Shown here: in pieces, positions 25,292-46,510 of the stretch | Layout: each line of letters opens with the position of its first letter | Numbering within the stretch: position 1 is the first letter of the stretch | Assembly: GCA_024641545.1 (NCBI GenBank) | Contig: JAHECW010000017.1 | Location: 1 to 48,709, forward strand | Direction: 5' to 3' | From: Acidobacteriota bacterium | GTDB taxonomy: Bacteria; Acidobacteriota; Thermoanaerobaculia; Thermoanaerobaculales; Sulfomarinibacteraceae | DNA: 48,709 nt | Program-made: the position numbers and the translations under genes | Notes under the pieces: generated by a model | What the model was told of the DNA's origin: nothing | Seen by the model: only the letters and a program-made list of their open reading frames with translations | Databases searched by the model: none

Positions 25292-26077
25292 ATGTTCGGA
25301 CGAAACAAGAAAGGACCGACCGCCCCGAGTTCCGGCTTGACGTTCCAGCGCTGGATCAGAGACCGGGTCGAGGCCGAAGACTACTGGTTCCAGAAGATCC
25401 CGCTGTTCGACGACCTCGTGACCCCCGGGTGGTCCGACCCGGCGACCGAAAAGGAGCCCTATTTTTCGGTTCCGGGAGACCTCACCGGCAAACGCGTCCT
25501 CGACATCGGCTGTGCCGAAGGCTACTTTTCGTTTCTCGCGGAGCGCAAAGGCGCGGCCGAGGTGGTTGCCATCGATTCATTCCCGGACTCCGTTCGGCGG
25601 TTCAACATCTGCCGAGAGGCGCTCGGTTCCAAAGCCACAGCCTATCTCTGCAACGTCTACGACCTCAGTCCGAAGACCTTCGGGACATTCGACGTGGTCC
25701 TTTTTTACGGTGTCCTCTACCATCTCCGTCACCCGCTTCTCGCCCTTGAGAAGATCGTCAGCGTGTGCACCGGAACCATGATGATGCAGACCCTCATCCA
25801 TGAGGACCCCGCCCTCGTCGACACCGCGATGGCGAAGTTCTATCCGCGAGGCCACCAGAGCGGGCCGATCGAGGAAAGCGACAACGACGAGTTCTTCGAT
25901 CCGACGATCTTCTGGGTGCCGAACAGGACCTGTGTCGTGGAGATGGTCGATTCGGCCGGATTCCAGGACATCGAGCGCGTCACCGACGATCCGTCGATTC
26001 CATTCGTCATACGGGCCAAGAGCCCCATCATCGCCCGCGGCGAGGCGCCGGACCAGATGAAGGCTCCGTGGTCATAA
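25292..26077 (+). CDS. SAM-dependent methyltransferase (CmoB-like class I)
   Basis: A 261-residue Rossmann methyltransferase. An N-terminal segment with 'DYWFQKIPLFDDLVTPGWSDP' precedes the SAM-binding motif I 'GKRVLDIGCAEGYFSFLAERKGA' (~66-88), motif II 'VVAIDSFPDSVRRFN' and motif IV 'FDVVLFYGVLYHLRHPLLALEKI'. The motif order and 'GVLYHLRHP' resemble CmoB-type and related sugar/lipid methyltransferases. Its gene overlaps the sulfatase-fold gene by 10 nt, suggesting that it modifies a glycan or lipid handled by the same locus rather than tRNA. The ATG at 25292 has GGAG upstream. The 186 bp before it hold only a TAGACT -10-like box (25190-25195). Confidence 0.88.
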   Translation: MFGRNKKGPTAPSSGLTFQRWIRDRVEAEDYWFQKIPLFDDLVTPGWSDPATEKEPYFSVPGDLTGKRVLDIGCAEGYFSFLAERKGAAEVVAIDSFPDSVRRFNICREALGSKATAYLCNVYDLSPKTFGTFDVVLFYGVLYHLRHPLLALEKIVSVCTGTMMMQTLIHEDPALVDTAMAKFYPRGHQSGPIEESDNDEFFDPTIFWVPNRTCVVEMVDSAGFQDIERVTDDPSIPFVIRAKSPIIARGEAPDQMKAPWS

Positions 26078-28890
26078 CCCCTTCGTCGCTCGGGGCGGCT
26101 TCGCCGAGACCCGGCGATCGAACCACTCGGACGACCGGAGTCATCGGATTCGGATGGTTCCCGACCGTGCTGGCCGCGGCCGCCCTGGCTTTCCTCGCGG
26201 GTTGCCACGGATCCGAACCACAGCCCGCTGAGGCCGCCCGCAATCTCATCAGGCTGATGCCGGAGACCACCGAAACGCCGAGCACACAGGTTCCGATTTG
26301 GGAGGAGAACGAGGTCTTTCGTTGGGATCTCTCCACCGAAGAGGAGGTCGCGCTGTGGCAGCAAGAGCGGATCGGCGACGACGTCGCCCTGAAGTCGGGC
26401 GGACTCTATTTTCGATCGAAAAACAGCGATCCGGCGCTGTCTCGCGCGACGTCTCTCGATGCCGACCGAATCGACGCCATCCGGGTGTCCCAGAACGGTC
26501 TCACCACCGGGGCCTCGCTGCAGATTTTCTGGACCCGGCCCGGCGAGATCTTCGCGGAAGAACGATCCATGGTCACCGATCGGATGGACTCCAACGGTAG
26601 CCTGACGCCCACGTTCACCTTCGATGTGTACCGTCACGACCTGTGGTCCGGCACCATCGACGGCTTCCGTCTCGACCCGACATCGGTGGCCATGAGACGG
26701 GTGCAGGTCAACTCGATCTCGGGGATCGAGTACGTGATGTCGCAAGCCCTGATGGACGCGGCCGTATCCAAGGCGTGGCGGGTGGATTTTCGCGGCGACG
26801 CCAGGTACGCCGTGCTTGTGCCGCCCGATCGGCCCTATGTCCGGGAGGTCACGATTCCCGACGCCTCACGGCTCCAATTCGCCGTCGGACTTCCTCCTGG
26901 AATCCCGGTCGAAGTTCGATTCAAGGTGACCTGGTCGCCCGACGATCGCCCTGAAGAGGTCGTCTTCGAAGAAACCGTTTCGCCGACGCTCGAAGCACGC
27001 GACGCGAAGTGGCTCGATCGCTCCATCGATCTGACGCCGTATGGCGGTCGGCGGGGAAAGCTGACCTTCAGCACCGAGACCTCCGGCGAACTCGATCTTC
27101 GAGACGGCTTCCCCTGCTTTGCCAACATCTCGGTCGTCGTTGACCGACCCGTCGAGCCGAAGATGAACGTGGTCCTCATTGTCGTCGACACCCTCCGCGC
27201 CGATGGTCTGTCGTGTTACGGCAGCGAGTTCGAGTCGTCCCCGCGAATCGACGCCTGGGCACGGGAGTCCGGCGTGATCTTCAATCACGTCGTCGTCTCG
27301 GCGCCGTGGACCCTCCCCTCGCACGTTTCCATCTTCACCGGGATGGATCCCATCAACCACAGCATGAACGTCGGCGAACCGATCGACGAGTCGCTGATCA
27401 CCCTGGCTGAAGCTCTGAACGAACAGGGATACGCCACCGTCGCCTTCACCGGGGGCGGATACCTGTCCACCGACTTCGCCCTGATGCAGGGGTTTGACAA
27501 GGTTCACTACTTCTATGAGTCTCGGGCCCGCCCGAGAGAAACCGGAAACGACATCGAATCGGGAGTGGACCACACCCTCACGTGGCTCGATGCCAACGCC
27601 GATCATCCCTTCTTCCTGATGTTCCACACCTACGAGGTCCACGCCCCGTACCGGCCGCGAGAGCCCTTTGTCAGTCGATTCCTCGGCGTCGAACCGGGGA
27701 CCATCGACACGCTCATCTCGACCGGTCCGGTCGAGCCGACGAGAGAGATCGGTTATCAACTCACCAGCAGATTGATGCAGCGCCATTTGGAAGACGGACC
27801 GAGATACGAGCCCATCGATCCCGATCTCGAACCGATGGTCCCCGCCCTGTACGCAAGCAGCGTCGCCAACGCCGATGCCCATATCGGAAGAATCCTCGAC
27901 AAACTCGAGGCTCTCGGCGTTGCCGACAACACGATCGTGATCCTGACCTCGGATCACGGCGAAGCTCTCGGCGAAAATGGCCTCGCGGGCCACGCGACTC
28001 TGCAGGAGTGCGAGATCATGGTGCCGCTCATCGTCGCCGCTCCGGGCAGCAAGGCCCGCGGGGGGCGCGTCGACGAGCAGGTCCAGTCGATCAGCATCGC
28101 TCCCACGATTCTCGATCTTCTGGGTCTCGATCCTCTGCCGGAGAGCGACGGCCGATCGCTCGTTGGGTTCCTCGAAGGCGACGAACCGGGTGAGATGGGG
28201 GACGCCGTCACTTACGCAGGATCGAGCAATTTCGGCATCTCGGTCCGCCGCGCCAACCGCCTGAAGTACATCTACAACAACTCGATCTGGCCCGCGAACC
28301 ACGGCCGGGAAGAACTCGTTGCTCTCGAACCGGCCGCCGGGGCCCTCATCGACCCAACGACCACGTCGGAGACAGCCGGCGAGTTCCGACGCGACCTGAG
28401 GGAGGACCTCGAGACCCGGTACACCGGTCTCAGGGTTCACTACGCCAACCACCAGACGACGCCGATGCGTGCGATCCTGAAGGGCTGGCTCGTCAATCCC
28501 CTCCGCGTCAAGTCGTTCGACATCACCGCCGACGACATCAGCTGGATCAACGACCGCCTCAATTTCACCCTCGATCCCGGAGAGAGCGCGACGTTCCTTC
28601 TCGAGGGGGCGGTCCGGGGAGAGCTGCAGGTCGTCTGCACCTTCGACGGCGCACCGAACGCGGCTCAATCTCGGCTCAACCACACCCTGCTCCTCGACCG
28701 GCTCGAGTCGCAGTGGCAGGCCGCGCTTCAAGACGGCGCGTGGACCGAAGACCCGGGTCCTTCCGGCGCGACCGACTCGACCCGGGTCCGCGTTTGGATC
28801 GGGGGAGCTCGCGCCGCTGCGCGGTCGACCGGCGCCATCAACGAACAAACGCGGGAAGAGCTCAAACAGCTGGGTTATCTGGTGGATTGA
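26068..28890 (+). CDS. Sulfatase-fold lipoprotein with Thr nucleophile (alkaline phosphatase superfamily)
   Basis: A 940-residue protein. A lipoprotein-type leader near 28-46 ends 'LAFLAGC'; an N-terminal beta-sandwich of ~300 residues is followed by the catalytic domain from ~365: 'NVVLIVVDTLRADGLSCYG' (metal Asp), 'APWTLPSHVSIFTG' (Thr ~415), 'FFLMFHTYEVHAPY', 'IVILTSDHGEALGE' (~629) and 'GHATLQECEIMVPLIV'. The formylglycine motif C/S-x-P-x-R of true sulfatases reads T-L-P-S-H, so it is more likely a phospho-transferase or phosphodiesterase acting on envelope glycans or lipids. It ends 'EELKQLGYLVD', like the second homolog at 44153-46510. GTG start at 26068, inside the end of the methyltransferase gene. 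Confidence 0.85.
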   Translation: MVITPSSLGAASPRPGDRTTRTTGVIGFGWFPTVLAAAALAFLAGCHGSEPQPAEAARNLIRLMPETTETPSTQVPIWEENEVFRWDLSTEEEVALWQQERIGDDVALKSGGLYFRSKNSDPALSRATSLDADRIDAIRVSQNGLTTGASLQIFWTRPGEIFAEERSMVTDRMDSNGSLTPTFTFDVYRHDLWSGTIDGFRLDPTSVAMRRVQVNSISGIEYVMSQALMDAAVSKAWRVDFRGDARYAVLVPPDRPYVREVTIPDASRLQFAVGLPPGIPVEVRFKVTWSPDDRPEEVVFEETVSPTLEARDAKWLDRSIDLTPYGGRRGKLTFSTETSGELDLRDGFPCFANISVVVDRPVEPKMNVVLIVVDTLRADGLSCYGSEFESSPRIDAWARESGVIFNHVVVSAPWTLPSHVSIFTGMDPINHSMNVGEPIDESLITLAEALNEQGYATVAFTGGGYLSTDFALMQGFDKVHYFYESRARPRETGNDIESGVDHTLTWLDANADHPFFLMFHTYEVHAPYRPREPFVSRFLGVEPGTIDTLISTGPVEPTREIGYQLTSRLMQRHLEDGPRYEPIDPDLEPMVPALYASSVANADAHIGRILDKLEALGVADNTIVILTSDHGEALGENGLAGHATLQECEIMVPLIVAAPGSKARGGRVDEQVQSISIAPTILDLLGLDPLPESDGRSLVGFLEGDEPGEMGDAVTYAGSSNFGISVRRANRLKYIYNNSIWPANHGREELVALEPAAGALIDPTTTSETAGEFRRDLREDLETRYTGLRVHYANHQTTPMRAILKGWLVNPLRVKSFDITADDISWINDRLNFTLDPGESATFLLEGAVRGELQVVCTFDGAPNAAQSRLNHTLLLDRLESQWQAALQDGAWTEDPGPSGATDSTRVRVWIGGARAAARSTGAINEQTREELKQLGYLVD

Positions 28891-35810: not shown

Positions 35811-38069
35811 ATGACTCAGAAGCCCCCCGCCACGATTCGTTTTCTCGGAGCCAACCGCAGCTATTCCGACGGCGCCGAAGACGAAGTGCTCGCGGTATTG
35901 GAGAGCGCCGCCGACCGCAGTGATGGCTCCGACGAGCTTTTCCGACATGCGGTCGACTGGCCGACGACATACCACTTCAGCCCACGACGCAGCAATATCC
36001 TGCGCCCTTTCGAGATCAACAAACACCATCGGGTTCTCGAAATCGGCGCCGGGACCGGTGCAGTCACCCGTTACCTCGGCGAGCGCGGGGCCGACGTGAC
36101 CGCCCTCGAAGGGGAGTCGATCCGGGCTCGAGCCATCGCCGCCCGGTGCTCCGACCTCGCGAACGTCGCGGTCGTCAGCGGCTCGCTCGAAGACTTCCAC
36201 GACGCGAGCGGCTTCGACCTCGTCGTGATTGTCGGCGTCCTCGAGTACGCCGGCCCAGCGACTTCCGACCGCCGCCATCAGCTCGATTTCCTGCGCTGCG
36301 CCTCCGACCTGCTCCGCCCCGACGGGACCCTGGTGCTCGCCATCGAGAATCAGATCGGCCTCAAGTATCTCCTCGGCTACAGCGAGGACCACCTGAACCA
36401 ACCGTGGGTCGGCGTCGAGGGCTATCCCGGCAGACCCGCCGTCTGCACCGTACCTCGCACCGCGCTGACTTCCCTTCTCGCCGAGGTTGGATTGCCCGCG
36501 CAGCGCTGGTACTACCCTTATCCCGACTACAAGCTCCCAAAAACGATCCTCGCCGAGCAGGCGTTCAACCTGCCCGCCTCCACTGAGCTTGTCGACCAAC
36601 TCGCCGGCCGCCCGGTCCAGGATCTCGCCAACCCGCCGACACGTTTCTGTGACGATCGCGCATGCCATCGCGTCTTTCTCGATGCAGGCCTCGGGATCGA
36701 GGTGGCGAACTCGTTCCTCGTGGCCGCAGCACGGCGGGACGCCGCCCTCGATGCGACCACCGACGCGGCGGCGGTCGCATGGCACTTCAGCTCCGACCGG
36801 CTCAAACGTTGGCGGCGCTCCCAGACGGTTCGGAGGAGTGACGGCGTTCTTCGGCTGACGGCGGGTCCGATCTTCCCGGACGCATCGAGAGCTGAACCGG
36901 CCTGGCTTGGTCACGATCCCAACAAGGATGAGGAGTTCACCGTCGGTCGAACCCTGGAACAGGAGGCCATGGAGTCGTCCAGGAACTTCGACCTCGACGG
37001 CCTCGCGGTCGTCGTCCGACGCTGGCACGCGCTGCTCACGGAAAGGGAGACCCCGCCAACCCACGGTTCGGATGCCGACATCCCGTTTGCACCGCGTCCC
37101 GGCCGGTCCGCTCTGCCGCCGGAGTATCTCGATGCGAGCCTGTCGAATTTCGTCGACAGCGGGGATGCCACCGTCTTCATCGACCGCGAGTGGCGTCTCG
37201 GTTCACAGGTCGATGCGACGCTCACCCGGGTCCGAACGCTGTGGTACTTCGCGCTCGACCTCGTCGTGTCCGGCGCCGGCCACCCATTCGGCCCCAAAAC
37301 TGCGGTCAACGACCTCGCCATCCGGCTGGCGAAACTCGCCGGCCTCGATTTCGATCAGGGTCTGATCGAGGAGTTCATCGCCGACGAGGCCCGACTCCAG
37401 GAGGTGGTCACCGGAAAGCCCGCGCAGCGCATCGATGACGATCTTCACGCCGTGGGATCGATTTCGAGAACCAAGAAAGAGGCCACGGCCAACCTCCCGG
37501 TCTCCCAGATCCGCCGTGATCTCGTCCAGCTCGATGGGTTGCTCCACGGCATGGAGTCCCAAGCCGAGGACTCCCGGACCTACCAGGCCCGGCTCGAGAG
37601 AGAGATCACCGCCTTCGGTTCCGGAATGGCGAAACTGGAAGACGAGTACCGGCGGCTCGAGCACCTGCTCAAGAGCCATGAGATCCAGAACCGCGAAGTG
37701 ACGGTCTGGGCGCGGGGCCTCGAAGCCCAGATCCAGGAAGTGACGACCTGGGCGCGGAACCTCGAAGCCCAGATCCAGGAAGTGACGACCTGGGCGCGGA
37801 ACCTCGAAGCCCAGGTTCTGGCGGCTCAAACGCGGGAACGCGCTCTCATAGACGAGGCGGCCGAGGCCGAGAGGGCGTCGGCGAGAATCCGTGCCGATCG
37901 CACCGCGCTCGAGCTACGCGTCGTCAGCATCGCGAGGGAGGTCGAGGAGCTTCGGACGTGGAAGCAGCGGGCGCTCCGGCGCCCTCTCGTGAGGTTCGCA
38001 CTCGCGTTTCACCGGTTCTTCGCGCACGAGGACGCCGACGACGATGAAAAGGCGCCGGACAACCGGTGA
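35811..38069 (+). CDS. Methyltransferase-kinase-coiled-coil protein, WbdD-like chain terminator candidate
   Basis: A 752-residue protein in three parts. (1) Class I methyltransferase: SAM motif 'VLEIGAGTGAVTRYLGERGADVTALEG' (~75-101), 'FDLVVIVGVLEYAG' and 'GTLVLAIENQIGLKYLLGY'. (2) A kinase-like central part (~250-540) whose catalytic elements look like 'LDASLSN' (Asp441...Asn446) and 'VFIDREW' (Asp458), i.e. the HxDxxxxN loop and metal Asp of small-molecule kinases. (3) A coiled coil (~565-725) with three 14-residue repeats, then a basic tail. The order and length resemble E. coli WbdD, which methylates and phosphorylates the end of an O-polysaccharide and measures chain length with its coil. 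No Wzm/Wzt-type exporter is in the window. Function is inferred. Confidence 0.75.
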   Translation: MTQKPPATIRFLGANRSYSDGAEDEVLAVLESAADRSDGSDELFRHAVDWPTTYHFSPRRSNILRPFEINKHHRVLEIGAGTGAVTRYLGERGADVTALEGESIRARAIAARCSDLANVAVVSGSLEDFHDASGFDLVVIVGVLEYAGPATSDRRHQLDFLRCASDLLRPDGTLVLAIENQIGLKYLLGYSEDHLNQPWVGVEGYPGRPAVCTVPRTALTSLLAEVGLPAQRWYYPYPDYKLPKTILAEQAFNLPASTELVDQLAGRPVQDLANPPTRFCDDRACHRVFLDAGLGIEVANSFLVAAARRDAALDATTDAAAVAWHFSSDRLKRWRRSQTVRRSDGVLRLTAGPIFPDASRAEPAWLGHDPNKDEEFTVGRTLEQEAMESSRNFDLDGLAVVVRRWHALLTERETPPTHGSDADIPFAPRPGRSALPPEYLDASLSNFVDSGDATVFIDREWRLGSQVDATLTRVRTLWYFALDLVVSGAGHPFGPKTAVNDLAIRLAKLAGLDFDQGLIEEFIADEARLQEVVTGKPAQRIDDDLHAVGSISRTKKEATANLPVSQIRRDLVQLDGLLHGMESQAEDSRTYQARLEREITAFGSGMAKLEDEYRRLEHLLKSHEIQNREVTVWARGLEAQIQEVTTWARNLEAQIQEVTTWARNLEAQVLAAQTRERALIDEAAEAERASARIRADRTALELRVVSIAREVEELRTWKQRALRRPLVRFALAFHRFFAHEDADDDEKAPDNR
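37695..37820 (+). repeat. 42-bp in-frame tandem repeat, three units
   Basis: Units at 37695-37736, 37737-37778 and 37779-37820 encode 'EVTVWARGLEAQIQ', 'EVTTWARNLEAQIQ' and 'EVTTWARNLEAQVL'. Fourteen residues equal exactly two coiled-coil heptads (hydrophobic V2, A6, L9, I13 in d-a-d-a register), so adding or losing a unit keeps frame and coil phase. Units differ at several bases, which argues against an assembly artefact. Confidence 0.93.
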
Positions 38070-38117: not shown

Positions 38118-39245
38118 TCACCGATTCATCGATCGCCGCCACTGCGGGCCGATACCACCTTCGAACCCGTCGACGAAAATCGGCGGCGAAGCGCATCTCG
38201 CGCCCCGGCCGGGATCGCGACCGACGACATAGAGCGAGAGCTGGCGGCGTCCGCGCTTGTTGTAGTGGCGCAGGCTCGGCAGGACGATCTCGTCGCCGGG
38301 CACCACCACCCCTCCGAATGAGATCTGATCTTCGCTCTCGACGAGGACCTCCGGTGCGGTCCACGAACGTCCGAGATCGAACGATCTCCGCATCAGGATC
38401 GACGCGCGATCGTACGACCCTCCTCCGGCCCGCTCATCCGAAGATGCCACAAACCAGAGCTCACCGTCGGGAAAGAGGACATAGCCACCGGGCTCCACAT
38501 CCGCGCCGTCCCAGATCACCGTGCCCTCCGACCACGACCGGCCGGCGTCGATCGAGCGCCGCTGCAGCACCCAGGAGGGAGCGGCCTCGGCCCTCTCGAG
38601 CTCATAGGCCAGGAGCAGCGATCCGCCGCCGAGATGGACGCTTCGGGTGTCTTCGACGTGCCTTCCGCGACGACCGCTGACCACCGGTTCCCCCCCCGAC
38701 CACGCGGCTCCCCCATCGAGAGAACGGTAGAGCAGAACCGTATAGACCGCGTCGTTGAGATCATCGGGGCGATCGACGTGCGTCGCAAATAGAATCACCT
38801 CGCCGCCCGGCAACGACTGGAGGTGGGTGTCGATGAAGAGACCGTCGCCGGCATCGGCCACGATCGGCGCCGACCAACCGCCGTCGGGATCCTCGGCCAT
38901 GACCAGCAGGCGGCGGGGCGCCTTCGGCTCGGAGCACGAAATCAGCAGGCGACCGTCGAGCTCGACGACGTCGGGCCAACTGCAGCTCAACGGCAGATCC
39001 TCGCGTCGCCAGCTGTACCCGAGATCGGTCGAATGCAGGAGCTCGACACCGCCGCCGACCAGGACCAGCTCGCCCGACTCCCGAAGCAGCGCAGCCACGT
39101 CGCCCGTCGCGCCGGCCACCCGGCAGTCGGGTGCGGTGGTCGCGGTCCGAGGCGTCTCCACCGGACCGAGAGACGCGCAACCCGTCAGCGCAACGAAACC
39201 GAGGGCGAGAATGAATATCCGAGCCGACCACATGCCCTGCATCAT
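38118..39245 (-). CDS. Sialidase-like (BNR/Asp-box) lipoprotein
   Basis: A 375-residue protein with a lipoprotein signal peptide; the lipobox 'LTGC' puts the lipidated Cys near residue 23. It contains four Asp-box (S-x-D-x-G-x-x-W) repeats, 'STDLGYSW', 'SLDGGAAW', 'SIDAGRSW' and 'SFDLGRSW', spread over a six-bladed beta-propeller. Family members include exo-alpha-sialidases and many non-enzymatic propellers. The catalytic Arg triad/Tyr cannot be confirmed by eye. The protein ends with 'IFVDGFEGGIGPQWRRSMNR', the same kind of tail as the genes at 22737 and 46541. ATG at 39245 (ATG 39233 possible). It is convergent with the methyltransferase-kinase gene. Confidence 0.8.
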   Translation of the reverse strand: MMQGMWSARIFILALGFVALTGCASLGPVETPRTATTAPDCRVAGATGDVAALLRESGELVLVGGGVELLHSTDLGYSWRREDLPLSCSWPDVVELDGRLLISCSEPKAPRRLLVMAEDPDGGWSAPIVADAGDGLFIDTHLQSLPGGEVILFATHVDRPDDLNDAVYTVLLYRSLDGGAAWSGGEPVVSGRRGRHVEDTRSVHLGGGSLLLAYELERAEAAPSWVLQRRSIDAGRSWSEGTVIWDGADVEPGGYVLFPDGELWFVASSDERAGGGSYDRASILMRRSFDLGRSWTAPEVLVESEDQISFGGVVVPGDEIVLPSLRHYNKRGRRQLSLYVVGRDPGRGARCASPPIFVDGFEGGIGPQWRRSMNR

Positions 39246-39456: not shown

Positions 39457-41307
39457 ATGGATCTCACTCACCTCCCCCGCCGTCTCGCCACCGCGGCCAA
39501 ACGAAAGCTGGATGATCGAGCCTATCGCCGCGCCCTCGCGCGCGGCGAACCGGCCGGCGCTCTCGCCTATCGATTCGTCGGCTGGGAGCAACCCGATCCG
39601 GCGCTGGTCGAGCTCCGGCTGCGGGCGGACGGACCGGGTGCGGTCGCCTACGCGGACGCACTCCGCTGGTGTCGCCGCCAGACCCTTTCGGAACTCCGCG
39701 CGGTGGGCTTTCGGGCCGACGGAGAAGAGGCCTGGCGGATCGAGCCCGGGGACGATCGACTCGCGGGCGTCGCCGCCTCGTGGTTCGCCGCACCCGGCTC
39801 TCTGCCGGATGTCATTTCCGCCCACCTCGAGACCTGCATGCTCACCGCCGCGGCCGAGGCCGTCGACGCCGTCGTGCTACTCGAACGCGTCGCGGCCTTC
39901 AGCGGCGAGGCCGTCGCCGACATCGACGCCGTACACCGGGCCGCCCTTCGCCCGTGGGCCCTCTATCGCCGCGACGCCTACACCTGGGATGCCGCAACCG
40001 ACACCGTCCGCCCCACCCGCGGTGATCGTCTGGCCAAGCTGATCGGCACCGCCGGTGTCGCCGACATCCCGTTCACCAGCGCAACCTTCAATCGCCGCCG
40101 CCGAGGGCCGTACCTCAGCGACGTCGATTTCGGTGCCGTGGCCCGGATCGCCCTTCGCGACGCCTCCCTGCTCGACCGCCGCGCAGCGAGCGACGAGCGA
40201 CCCGCGGTGCTCGTCCTGGCGCCCTTCCTCGCTCGCGGCGGGGCCGAGCAGACGCTCCACGCCACCATGGAAGCTCTCAGCCGGCGCTTCCGCTTCTCCA
40301 TGGTCACGCTGGCGCCCCACCGCGCGGCTCTCGGCGACCGTCGGGAGGATTTCCTCGAAATCACCCAGCGGATCCTCTGCCTCGGCGATCTCGTCCACCC
40401 TGACGCCATGGTCGGAATCCTCGAGGCCCTCCTCGACGCCACCGGCGCCGAGATCCTCTACAACGCCAACGGCACGACCCTGTTCTACGAATTCGCCCCC
40501 CGGCTCAAGGCGGGGCGGCCCTCGTTGCGGATCATCGACCACCTCTACGACCACCGCATCGGCTATATCGAAAGCTACCTCCCCGGGGTCGAGGAGTCGG
40601 TGGACGCCTGCGTCGCCGAGAACCGGCCCATCGCCGAGGTCCTGGTGCGGGACCGCGGCTGGCCCGAGACCCGGGTGCCGGTGATCTGGCCGTGCGGCCG
40701 CCCCGACGACGCCCTTCCTCCCGAATCCGACAGGGACCGGCTCAGGGACGCGATCCGGCACGAGTTCGGATTCAACGATGACGATGTCGTCTTCCTGGCG
40801 GCCGCCCGGATGCACCCGCAGAAACGCCCCCTCGATCTGGTTGCCCTGGCGGACCGGGTCCGCGACCTCGAAACGGTTCACTTCATCCTCGCCGGCGGCG
40901 GCGATCTCGCCGACGAGGTCGATGGCGCCATCGCCGCCCACGACGGCGCCCGGATTCGGCGGCTCGGATTTCGAAACGACATCCCCGACCTGATCCTGGC
41001 GTCGGACGTCGGTTGTCTGGTGTCGGAGCACGAGGGCCTGCCGGTTTTCATGCTCGAGTGCCTGCAGCTCGGCCGGCCGTTTCTCGGCACCCGGGTCGGG
41101 GATCTGGGCGCTGTGCTCGACGACACCGGCGCCGGCCTCGTGGTGGATCGCCCGGGCGATCTCGACGCCCTCGAGGCGGCAGTGCGTGCGCTCGCGGATC
41201 CCGCAACCCGCGCCGGGCTCGCCGAGCGGGCGAGGAGCGCCGCGCCGCGTTTTTCGGTGGCCGTCTGCGCCGACGCCTATGCACACGTATTTCTGGGTGA
41301 ATCCTAG
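39457..41307 (+). CDS. GT4 glycosyltransferase with N-terminal extension
   Basis: A 616-residue protein. The first ~240 residues are an alpha-helical or degenerate domain with no family I recognise. From ~248 ('RPAVLVLAPFLARGGAEQTLHATMEAL', the GGAE glycine loop) there is a GT-B glycosyltransferase ending with 'VVFLAAARMHPQKRPLDLVALADRV' and the E-x7-E motif 'SEHEGLPVFMLECLQLGRP'. It transfers a nucleotide-activated sugar to a growing glycan, donor unknown. The ATG at 39457 lacks a ribosome site; TAAACT (39439-39444) lies 12 nt before it. The next gene starts directly after its TAG and is a paralog. Confidence 0.88.
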   Translation: MDLTHLPRRLATAAKRKLDDRAYRRALARGEPAGALAYRFVGWEQPDPALVELRLRADGPGAVAYADALRWCRRQTLSELRAVGFRADGEEAWRIEPGDDRLAGVAASWFAAPGSLPDVISAHLETCMLTAAAEAVDAVVLLERVAAFSGEAVADIDAVHRAALRPWALYRRDAYTWDAATDTVRPTRGDRLAKLIGTAGVADIPFTSATFNRRRRGPYLSDVDFGAVARIALRDASLLDRRAASDERPAVLVLAPFLARGGAEQTLHATMEALSRRFRFSMVTLAPHRAALGDRREDFLEITQRILCLGDLVHPDAMVGILEALLDATGAEILYNANGTTLFYEFAPRLKAGRPSLRIIDHLYDHRIGYIESYLPGVEESVDACVAENRPIAEVLVRDRGWPETRVPVIWPCGRPDDALPPESDRDRLRDAIRHEFGFNDDDVVFLAAARMHPQKRPLDLVALADRVRDLETVHFILAGGGDLADEVDGAIAAHDGARIRRLGFRNDIPDLILASDVGCLVSEHEGLPVFMLECLQLGRPFLGTRVGDLGAVLDDTGAGLVVDRPGDLDALEAAVRALADPATRAGLAERARSAAPRFSVAVCADAYAHVFLGES

Positions 41308-44152: not shown

Positions 44153-46510
44153 CTACTTGATATAGCCGAGGGCCCGAAGCTGCTCTGCGAGCTCGTCATC
44201 ATCGACGGCGGCCGGTGGCCCGCCCAGGATGATGTCTCCCTGCCAGCGCACGGCCAGGCCGATTTCTCCCTCGGCCAGGCCCCGCCGAACCCGGCGCCAC
44301 CGTTCGCCATCGAGCACGACGGCCTCGGTACCCTCGAGGTTCTGCACGTCAAACCGCTCCCTCAAGGAGACGACCGAGCCGAATTGCTCGATCTCGCCCG
44401 CGACGGTCAGTGCGCCGCCGAAGACCTTCTCGAAAACGACGGTGAAGCTGCGGCCCGCCGGGACGTCCACCGACGCCTCGCCCATCCCGTCCCACCGGAG
44501 AAACGGCCCGTCCATGCCGATCACCTTGGTCCCCACCGGTCGGACGGGCGCCCCGAGAATCCGCCCCTGCAGCCGGGCGTCGCCGGTCTGAATCCGCAAC
44601 CGCAACCCGGCCGCGCGCCCGTACAGGTACGACGTCACCTTGGATTCGAGGCCATCGGCCCGGACATCGGCTTCGGCCAGATTCGCCGTCTCAGCGTGGT
44701 CTCTTTCGAGATCGAAGAGCTCGCGTCGACCCTTCGCCGGCGGCCAGGCCGCGTTGTTCAGAGTGAACTTGAGGCGGTTGTCGATCCTCAGCGAGACGCC
44801 CCGATTCGGCGCCGCCGAGTAGCTCCAGGCCTCGGCCGGCACCGCCGCCGGCTCACCTCGCAGTAAAGGCGCCAGCGAGACCCCGTCCATGGATCGCGAC
44901 GGCTCGATCCCGAGCACGTCGAGGATGGTCGGAGTCACGTCGATGAGGCGGACCTGACGATCGACCCGCCGCCCGCCGCCGGCGGCCCCGGGCGCGGCGA
45001 TGATCAGGGGAACGAGCAGGTTTTCGTCGGTGAGAAAGATGTGGCCCACGCGGCCGGCCTCGCCCAGCGACTCGCCGTGGTCCGAGGTGAAGACGATCAC
45101 GGTCCGGCTCGTGATCCCGAGCTCGTCCATCCCGTCGAGCAGACGGCCGATCTCGTGGTCCATGTAGGCGACACCGCTGTCGTACATGGCCGTGATCATG
45201 CGCCGATTCCCGTCGGACGGCTCGAGCGGCGACTCTCCACCGTCCTGCGGCCGCCAGACGAACCGGTTGACCTGCTGAAACCCGTTCTCGACGCTGTTCT
45301 TCGGCGACTTCAGGGCGACCCGTCCGGCGGGAGGGTCGCCCGGGTCGGCCGACACGCGATCGAAGAACCCGGCGCGGACACGGTAGGGGTCGTGCACCGC
45401 GTAGGTATGGAGAAAGAGGGCGAACGGGCGGGCCTGCTCGACCGCCATCCACGCCAGTGCCCTGTCGACGCCGGCCTCGAGCTCACCCCGGTCCCGCGCC
45501 CGGTCCGGCCAGGTCACGTAGCGGTCGAATCCCTGGGCGAATCCGAAACGGGGATCGAGGTACGCACCGCCGGTGAAGGCGGCGGTCTCGTAGCCGGCGC
45601 GGGCGAGAATCTCGGCAAGAAAATCGAGGGCGAGCACGGCGTCGCCGCCGCCGGGTGCGCCGAGCCCTCCGACATCGTGGTTGACTCCGTGGCGCACCGC
45701 ATCGAGACCGGTGAGGAGCGAAACGTGCGACGGCAGTGTCCACGGCGCCGGCGCCACGGCGGCGGTGAAGATCACCGCATCGGCGCCGGCCCAACCGTCG
45801 ATCCGGGGCGTCGTGGGCAGCGGGTAACCGTAGAGCGAGAGGTGGTCGGCGCGCAGTGTGTCGATGGAGATCAGGACCACGTTGAACCGTTCGTCCCGCC
45901 CGCCGTCCGTCGCCACCACCTCGGGATCGGCCAACAACGGGACGCCGAGGACCTCGCCGGAGCCGGGCTCGACGGCGGCCGTGATCACCAGCTCGACCTC
46001 TCGGCCGAGCCACGGTTCGAGGCCGGCGCGCACCTCCCACCAACGATCGGTGCTCTCGGCGGCGGGGTCGATCCGGTGTTCGAAGAGCTCGGCCTCCTGC
46101 CCGTCGGTCCCCCGCACGATCCCGCTAAAGACGGCCGGGCGGGCGAAACCGGCGGGCACCCCGACCGACGCCCGGAGCTCGGCCCCTCCGGCGACGAAGA
46201 TCCGGACCTCGAAAGTCGACCCCGGTGGCAGCGGCGCGGCGGTGCGCAGGTCGTTGCCGAGCTCGGCCTTCGCGACCGCCGGCGGACCCCGAAACCGCTG
46301 AATGAACGATGGCTTCTCGGTCGCGCCGAGAAGGCGATGGGGCTCGTCGGCGATGAGCCGGACCATCGGTCGCTCGCCGACCCGCACCGGGGCCGCCGGC
46401 GGTGCGCCTCCACAGCCTCCGAAGCCGATGACGAGGGCCGCCGTTACAGCGCAGACGCGGTCACGCCCCGCTCGATAGAAAACTGCCTCATGGTCGCTGG
46501 AAGCCGCCAC
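44153..46510 (-). CDS. Second sulfatase-fold lipoprotein with Thr nucleophile
   Basis: A 785-residue homolog of the protein at 26068-28890. Lipoprotein leader with 'GFGGC' (Cys33), N-terminal beta domain to ~205, catalytic domain with 'NVVLISIDTLRADHLSLYG' (Asp217), 'APWTLPSHVSLLTG' (Thr258, His262), 'FALFLHTYAVHDPY', 'VIVFTSDHGESLGE' and 'GHIFLTDENLLVPLII'. The usual C/S-x-P-x-R is T-L-P-S-H, so formylglycine chemistry is not expected. After ~595 comes a C-terminal beta region ending 'LAEQLRALGYIK', matching the other homolog's ending. GTG start at 46510; an internal start is possible. It lies 30 bp after the beta-helix gene on the same strand. Confidence 0.85.
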   Translation of the reverse strand: MAASSDHEAVFYRAGRDRVCAVTAALVIGFGGCGGAPPAAPVRVGERPMVRLIADEPHRLLGATEKPSFIQRFRGPPAVAKAELGNDLRTAAPLPPGSTFEVRIFVAGGAELRASVGVPAGFARPAVFSGIVRGTDGQEAELFEHRIDPAAESTDRWWEVRAGLEPWLGREVELVITAAVEPGSGEVLGVPLLADPEVVATDGGRDERFNVVLISIDTLRADHLSLYGYPLPTTPRIDGWAGADAVIFTAAVAPAPWTLPSHVSLLTGLDAVRHGVNHDVGGLGAPGGGDAVLALDFLAEILARAGYETAAFTGGAYLDPRFGFAQGFDRYVTWPDRARDRGELEAGVDRALAWMAVEQARPFALFLHTYAVHDPYRVRAGFFDRVSADPGDPPAGRVALKSPKNSVENGFQQVNRFVWRPQDGGESPLEPSDGNRRMITAMYDSGVAYMDHEIGRLLDGMDELGITSRTVIVFTSDHGESLGEAGRVGHIFLTDENLLVPLIIAAPGAAGGGRRVDRQVRLIDVTPTILDVLGIEPSRSMDGVSLAPLLRGEPAAVPAEAWSYSAAPNRGVSLRIDNRLKFTLNNAAWPPAKGRRELFDLERDHAETANLAEADVRADGLESKVTSYLYGRAAGLRLRIQTGDARLQGRILGAPVRPVGTKVIGMDGPFLRWDGMGEASVDVPAGRSFTVVFEKVFGGALTVAGEIEQFGSVVSLRERFDVQNLEGTEAVVLDGERWRRVRRGLAEGEIGLAVRWQGDIILGGPPAAVDDDELAEQLRALGYIK

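What the first reader, a model, noticed from the sequence alone, without database searches (positions are those of the whole stretch)
35811..38069. WbdD-like methyltransferase-kinase with a repeat-tunable coiled-coil ruler
The protein combines a SAM methyltransferase, a kinase-like centre (D-x4-N at 441-446 and 'FIDREW') and a ~160-residue coiled coil. E. coli WbdD has this order; it caps O-polysaccharide ends, and its coil length sets chain length. Here the coil holds a 42-bp tandem repeat of exactly two heptads, so slippage would lengthen or shorten the coil by about 2 nm without losing frame or phase. This would be a genetic mechanism for switching surface glycan length. The gene lies among five glycosyltransferase genes.
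Basis: partly seen in the sequence, partly recalled or inferred. Interest (0 to 1): 0.8.

Follow-up and report, generated by a model that had tools for sequence, protein, structure and literature searches.

The report
Glycan-capping enzyme with repeat-bearing coil
The gene most likely makes a two-step enzyme that caps a growing surface sugar chain with methyl-phosphate at the end of a long coiled-coil "ruler"; the ruler carries a real in-frame 42-base repeat, but nothing held here shows that the repeat number ever switches.

Summary
Window 35811-38069 encodes a 752-aa protein with a SAM methyltransferase, a kinase-like domain (D441-x4-N446, FIDREW) and a coil of about 165 residues. The coil carries a 42-bp, 2.9-copy tandem repeat (37695-37814), and five glycosyltransferase genes are nearby. 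Hydrophobic 3.5-residue periodicity runs through the coil with constant phase, so one repeat unit adds two heptads in register.

The closest characterized relative is not WbdD but the Klebsiella pneumoniae O7 terminator ORF6. All six SAM-pocket residues named for ORF6 have counterparts here at a near-constant offset, and the kinase model resembles APH-type small-molecule kinases, not WbdD's Src-like kinase. In other phyla, homologues sit directly behind Wzm/Wzt exporter genes; no such exporter is on this contig.

Repeat-driven switching is untested: no relative closer than 46% identity is held, and family homologues lack this repeat. Indirect support exists. In two sister genomes of the same family the enzyme has no coil, and a standalone repeat-bearing coil protein lies two genes upstream. 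It differs between them by an 18-residue repeat-associated indel, while the enzymes (88.6% identical) have no gaps. So ruler length evolves between species; a population-level switch remains speculation.

The parts
35811..38069 (+). Methyltransferase-kinase-coiled coil protein, 752 aa, flanked on both sides by opposite-strand genes
35994..36530 (+). Class I SAM methyltransferase domain (about residues 62-240); SAM-pocket residues G79, G81, E100, Y146 (Y18 and Y54 lie upstream)
   Evidence: Pfam; residue correspondence to K. pneumoniae O7 ORF6
36708..37415 (+). Kinase-like domain (residues about 300-535), predicted APH-like fold
   Evidence: AlphaFold model pLDDT 76; Foldseek hits to small-molecule kinases
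37131..37148 (+). Putative catalytic loop D441-x4-N446
   Evidence: at least 90% conserved in 14 homologues; corresponds to the catalytic Asp of O7 ORF6
37176..37193 (+). FIDREW, putative metal-binding Asp (DFG-like position)
   Evidence: D458, E460, W461 at least 90% conserved
37491..37985 (+). Coiled coil, residues about 561-725 (about 24 nm if fully helical)
   Evidence: 3.5-residue periodicity with constant phase; helix 651-737 in the model
37695..37814 (+). 42-bp tandem repeat, 2.9 copies (EVTTWARNLEAQIQ, two heptads per copy)
37962..38021 (+). C-terminal basic amphipathic helix (residues about 718-737), candidate membrane or polymerase docking site
   Evidence: hydrophobic moment 0.70 for residues 720-737; W-basic ... 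PVR/LVR motif shared by L016, L019, L020
33141..35717 (-). Divergent neighbour: GT2 plus GT4 fusion, candidate polymerase
   Evidence: Pfam; homologues next to the methyltransferase-kinase gene in L046, L047, L048
31637..33115 (-). GT4 glycosyltransferase
39457..41307 (+). GT4 glycosyltransferase with N-terminal extension
   Evidence: conserved in L045, L046, L048
41308..43062 (+). GT4 glycosyltransferase with N-terminal extension
   Evidence: conserved in L045, L046, L048
43190..44146 (+). GT2 glycosyltransferase
   Evidence: conserved in L045, L046, L048

Best explanation
The protein is a chain-terminating methyltransferase-kinase of the type characterized in K. pneumoniae O7 (ORF6). The kinase phosphorylates the non-reducing end of a growing glycan, and the methyltransferase then methylates the phosphate, which stops extension. 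The coil, anchored by the C-terminal amphipathic helix, would hold this capping head at a set distance from the membrane-side polymerase (perhaps the adjacent GT2-GT4 protein) and so set chain length. The 42-bp repeat is a recent in-frame duplication that lengthened the ruler by up to two units of about 2 nm while keeping heptad phase. Shown: domain order, conserved catalytic residues, heptad continuity, repeat, glycosyltransferase context. Inferred: capping chemistry, ruler function, polymerase partner, effect of the repeat on glycan length. Not shown at all: repeat-number switching within a population.
For: O7 ORF6 SAM-site residues Y28, Y66, G91, G93, E112, Y158 (PMC11231755) correspond to Y18, Y54, G79, G81, E100, Y146 here (offset 10, then constantly 12). 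The Pseudomonas plasmid homologue (33.5% identical over 531 residues covering both catalytic domains) has these six residues at exactly the ORF6 numbers and two C-terminal GT2 domains, as ORF6 does. The kinase model's best PDB matches are glucosamine, ethanolamine, maltose, macrolide and aminoglycoside kinases; ORF6's closest was AmiN, of the same class. Homologues lie directly behind Wzm/Wzt genes in 8 of 13 loci from other phyla and behind Wzt in a ninth, and on both plasmid hits. Coil. C-terminal helix. Glycosyltransferase cluster conserved in the family.
Against: No exporter gene lies on this 48.7-kb contig or beside the family homologues read. Wzt_C proteins are encoded elsewhere in the genome, but in 19 of 20 family genomes whether or not the enzyme is present. 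The position of the N-lobe lysine seen in several relatives is not lysine here, so kinase activity is not certain. Foldseek E-values for the kinase are weak (best 6.9e-3). Two family members lack the fused coil.
Confidence: 0.66

Rival explanations
1. One reading: the 42-bp array is a live slippage switch, so that cells in one population differ in repeat number, coil length and surface glycan length.
For: Unit is in frame and two heptads long; phase is constant through it; copies 2 and 3 are identical over 36 bases, so the last duplication is recent. A standalone coil protein of the sister pair G013/G016 differs by an 18-residue repeat-associated indel while seven other syntenic pairs have 0-4 gap positions.
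Against: No variant allele seen; only one genome of the species is held; family homologues have no such array. Three copies of a 42-bp unit is a short array. The sister-pair change is between species, and 18 residues is not a multiple of seven.
Confidence: 0.1
2. The repeat is an incidental duplication in a coil whose exact length matters little; coils tolerate such duplications and this one is neutral.
For: Coil length between kinase and C-terminal motif varies widely in the family (roughly 190, 185, 145, 118 residues, and none in two); the repeat is private to this sequence; internal duplications occur in some other coils of the family and not in others.
Against: Phase is preserved through the whole coil and the C-terminal docking motif is conserved in the fused forms, which suggests that the coil as a whole is under selection.
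Confidence: 0.45
3. The enzyme modifies a glycan but is not a length-setting terminator: for example it decorates a protein-linked or short glycan made by this exporter-free cluster, or the kinase half is degenerate and only methylation remains.
For: No Wzm/Wzt, flippase-like or other multi-spanning protein among genes at 22-48.7 kb; N-lobe lysine position not conserved here; two relatives lack a fused coil.
Against: D441, N446, D458 are conserved; homologues elsewhere are next to Wzm/Wzt; relatives without fused coil have a separate coil protein in the same cluster.
Confidence: 0.22

Closest known systems
ORF6 of K. pneumoniae O7 (methyltransferase-kinase chain terminator; PMC11231755)
   Same: Methyltransferase then APH-like kinase then coiled coil; all six named SAM-site residues and the catalytic Asp have counterparts; relatives linked to Wzm/Wzt.
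   Different: No C-terminal GT2 domains and no clear carbohydrate-binding module here; no linked exporter; a 42-bp repeat in the coil. The paper reports orthologues that end after the coil, so that difference is not new.
WbdD of E. coli O9a (PMC3482155)
   Same: Same order: methyltransferase, kinase, coil, C-terminal amphipathic region; coil-only layout with glycosyltransferases in separate genes.
   Different: WbdD's kinase is Src-like; the kinase here models as APH-like and no WbdD match was found with it.
Coil-length variants of WbdD made experimentally (review PMC5082667)
   Same: Insertions and truncations of the coil raise or lower modal O-antigen length, the effect that repeat gain or loss here would be expected to have.
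   Different: Those were engineered; here only one natural allele is known and no phenotype.

Membership tests
K. pneumoniae O7 ORF6-type methyltransferase-kinase terminators | Methyltransferase with SAM residues Y28, Y66, G91, G93, E112, Y158 | tested here: met
   Y18, Y54, G79, G81, E100, Y146; the ORF6 sequence itself was not available, so the match is by residue number plus the Pseudomonas homologue
K. pneumoniae O7 ORF6-type methyltransferase-kinase terminators | Kinase domain of APH/AmiN-like fold with catalytic Asp (D441) | tested here: met
   D441 conserved; best fold matches are APH-class kinases, weak E-values
K. pneumoniae O7 ORF6-type methyltransferase-kinase terminators | Coiled coil after the kinase | tested here: met
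K. pneumoniae O7 ORF6-type methyltransferase-kinase terminators | Gene in an ABC-transporter-dependent (Wzm/Wzt) polysaccharide cluster | tested here: not met
   None on the contig; Wzt_C genes on three other contigs; met in relatives of other phyla. This is a context feature of the system, not of the protein itself
K. pneumoniae O7 ORF6-type methyltransferase-kinase terminators | Phosphorylation then methylation of the glycan end | not testable with these tools
   needs enzyme assay
WbdD (E. coli O9a) | Order methyltransferase, kinase, coil, C-terminal amphipathic helix | tested here: met
WbdD (E. coli O9a) | Eukaryotic (Src-like) kinase fold | tested here: not met
   small-molecule kinases lead the fold matches; only weak, non-significant sequence hits to the JAK2 N-lobe
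WbdD (E. coli O9a) | Trimeric coil that recruits the polymerase | not testable with these tools
   needs biochemistry
Repeat-based length or phase-variation locus | Repeat number differs between isolates or cells | not testable with these tools
   one genome of the species held; nearest family homologue 46% identical

The most novel reading that the evidence does not exclude
In this bacterial family the length ruler of a glycan terminator is a rapidly evolving, repeat-built module that changes length by in-frame repeat gain and loss and can be fused to the capping enzyme or supplied as a separate coiled-coil protein (a split ruler in G013 and G016), giving a genetic route to changing surface glycan length.
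Probability: 0.22. Interest if true: 0.72.

Novelty: new member of a known kind. Interest (0 to 1): 0.45.

Why it matters
Engineered changes in coil length are known to change O-antigen length in E. coli O9a. A natural terminator whose coil is built from in-frame repeats would show how bacteria could tune surface glycan length by repeat gain and loss, and this gene together with the G013/G016 pair makes that directly testable. The family also extends the O7-type methyltransferase-kinase to a further lineage and to clusters without a linked exporter.

Tried and rejected
Single-sequence search of the PDB found only generic methyltransferases and coiled coils. A fold search with the full-length model was swamped by methyltransferases, so the kinase was modelled alone. 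In the full-length model the repeat region came out as low-confidence strands; this is probably an artefact of aligning the coil with unrelated post-kinase segments of the relatives, and it was not used. A search for close relatives to compare repeat number failed: none above 46% identity in 20 family genomes, and few matches in 396 phylum genomes. A possible fused-coil sister gene in G018 is cut short and its remainder was not found. The K. pneumoniae O7 sequence could not be fetched: a family search centred on the Citrobacter plasmid is not accepted by the tool. A recurring 42-base best self-match offset in other coils was checked with a heptad-preserving null: besides the window it is clearly significant only in L007 (L006 marginal, and its match is not in a clear coil).

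Full report
What was checked. The ORF is 752 aa. Pfam finds only the methyltransferase. The D441-x4-N446 and FIDREW motifs are at the stated residues and their key residues are at least 90% conserved in 14 homologues from several phyla. The 42-bp array at 37695-37814 is by far the strongest tandem repeat in the window, and it exceeds a null that preserves codon content and heptad position.

The coil. Hydrophobic residues between 561 and 728 have a sharp 3.5-residue periodicity (power 2.82, 0 of 5000 shuffles as high), and this remains with the repeat collapsed to one copy. The phase is the same before, within and after the repeat. Methyltransferase and kinase segments used as controls show none. 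The last 58 residues on their own are not significant. One unit of 14 residues is about 2.1 nm of helix. Copies 1 and 2 differ at four bases in two codons, both changing the amino acid; copies 2 and 3 are identical for the first 36 bases, so the array looks young.

The kinase. A model of residues 299-545 made from window and related-locus sequences reached mean pLDDT 76. Its best PDB matches are glucosamine kinase, ethanolamine kinase, maltose kinase, macrolide and aminoglycoside phosphotransferases, mixed with unrelated low-probability hits; the best E-value is only 6.9e-3. A sequence profile of the domain gives only insignificant hits, mostly to JAK2. This supports an APH-like kinase and speaks against the Src-like kinase described for WbdD (PMC3482155). 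The position of the N-lobe lysine seen in several relatives is not lysine here.

The closest known system. K. pneumoniae O7 ORF6 was shown by others to phosphorylate and then methylate the glycan end, with an unannotated AmiN-like kinase and catalytic D441 (PMC11231755). The SAM-site residues listed for ORF6 have counterparts here at an offset of 10 for the first and 12 for the other five. A Pseudomonas plasmid protein has them at exactly the ORF6 numbers, carries two C-terminal GT2 domains, and aligns with the window protein over residues 17-538. The Citrobacter plasmid homologue lies in a row of dTDP-rhamnose genes, ABC permease, ABC ATPase, enzyme and glycosyltransferases. Wzm/Wzt-like genes lie directly upstream in most of the Firmicutes homologue loci.

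Context in the window's own family. Seven of 20 family genomes have a homologue. The glycosyltransferase genes around it are conserved in L045, L046 and L048, and partly in L047. No exporter or other multi-spanning protein was seen in this part of the contig. The window is the whole contig. Wzt_C proteins occur on other contigs of the genome and in 19 of 20 family genomes, so export through an unlinked transporter is possible but not specific.

Evidence on length change. The distance from the kinase end to the C-terminal motif varies: about 190 residues in the window, about 118, 185 and 145 in L016, L019 and L020. In G013 and G016 the enzyme stops right after the kinase, with a convergent gene immediately downstream. 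In both, a standalone protein of 319 or 325 residues two genes upstream shows strong 3.5-residue periodicity, internal repeats (96 bp, 2.4 copies in G016) and a basic N-terminus. That protein is found only in these two of the 20 family genomes. The two orthologues are 70.5% identical with 22 gap positions, including one 18-residue repeat-associated indel. Seven other syntenic pairs are 86-95% identical with no gaps, or 4 gap positions in one. So the coil is the fastest-changing protein compared in the cluster. Eighteen residues is not a whole number of heptads, so strict heptad steps are not a general rule. The two genomes are related, so the co-occurrence of coil-less enzyme and separate coil is a single evolutionary observation.

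Verdict. The reading as a capping enzyme with a coil ruler is well supported in outline, with the family corrected from WbdD to the O7 ORF6 type. The claim of a genetic switch is untested; it rests on one allele and on indirect evidence from a related genus.

Noticed in passing
L046:7442-8401 (+) and L047:4794-5771 (-): Standalone repeat-bearing coiled-coil protein with basic N-terminus, two genes from a coil-less methyltransferase-kinase in G013 and G016; found in only these two of 20 family genomes. Possible split ruler.
   Followed up: partly
L044:11923-16296: Pseudomonas asturiensis plasmid protein with methyltransferase, kinase-like, coil and two GT2 domains behind ABC transporter genes, annotated only as 'glycosyltransferase'; appears to be an O7 ORF6-type terminator-polymerase.
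   Followed up: partly
L043:7207-22046: Citrobacter braakii conjugative plasmid carries dTDP-rhamnose genes, an ABC exporter, a methyltransferase-kinase and glycosyltransferases: what looks like an O-polysaccharide cluster on a plasmid.
   Followed up: no
L050:7840-11178: Homologue in G034 followed by a 114-bp tandem repeat (2.9 copies, 86%) encoding PHPLFD-x-FYL-x-NPDV repeats after the coil.
   Followed up: no
window 38118-39245: BNR-repeat protein gene between the enzyme and the glycosyltransferases; homologues occur beside the enzyme in G002, G008, G013 and G016.
   Followed up: no
window 26068-28890 and 44153-46510: Two large sulfatase-family proteins, about 36% identical to each other, flank the glycosyltransferase cluster; related genes are near the cluster in G008, G013 and G016.
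   Followed up: no
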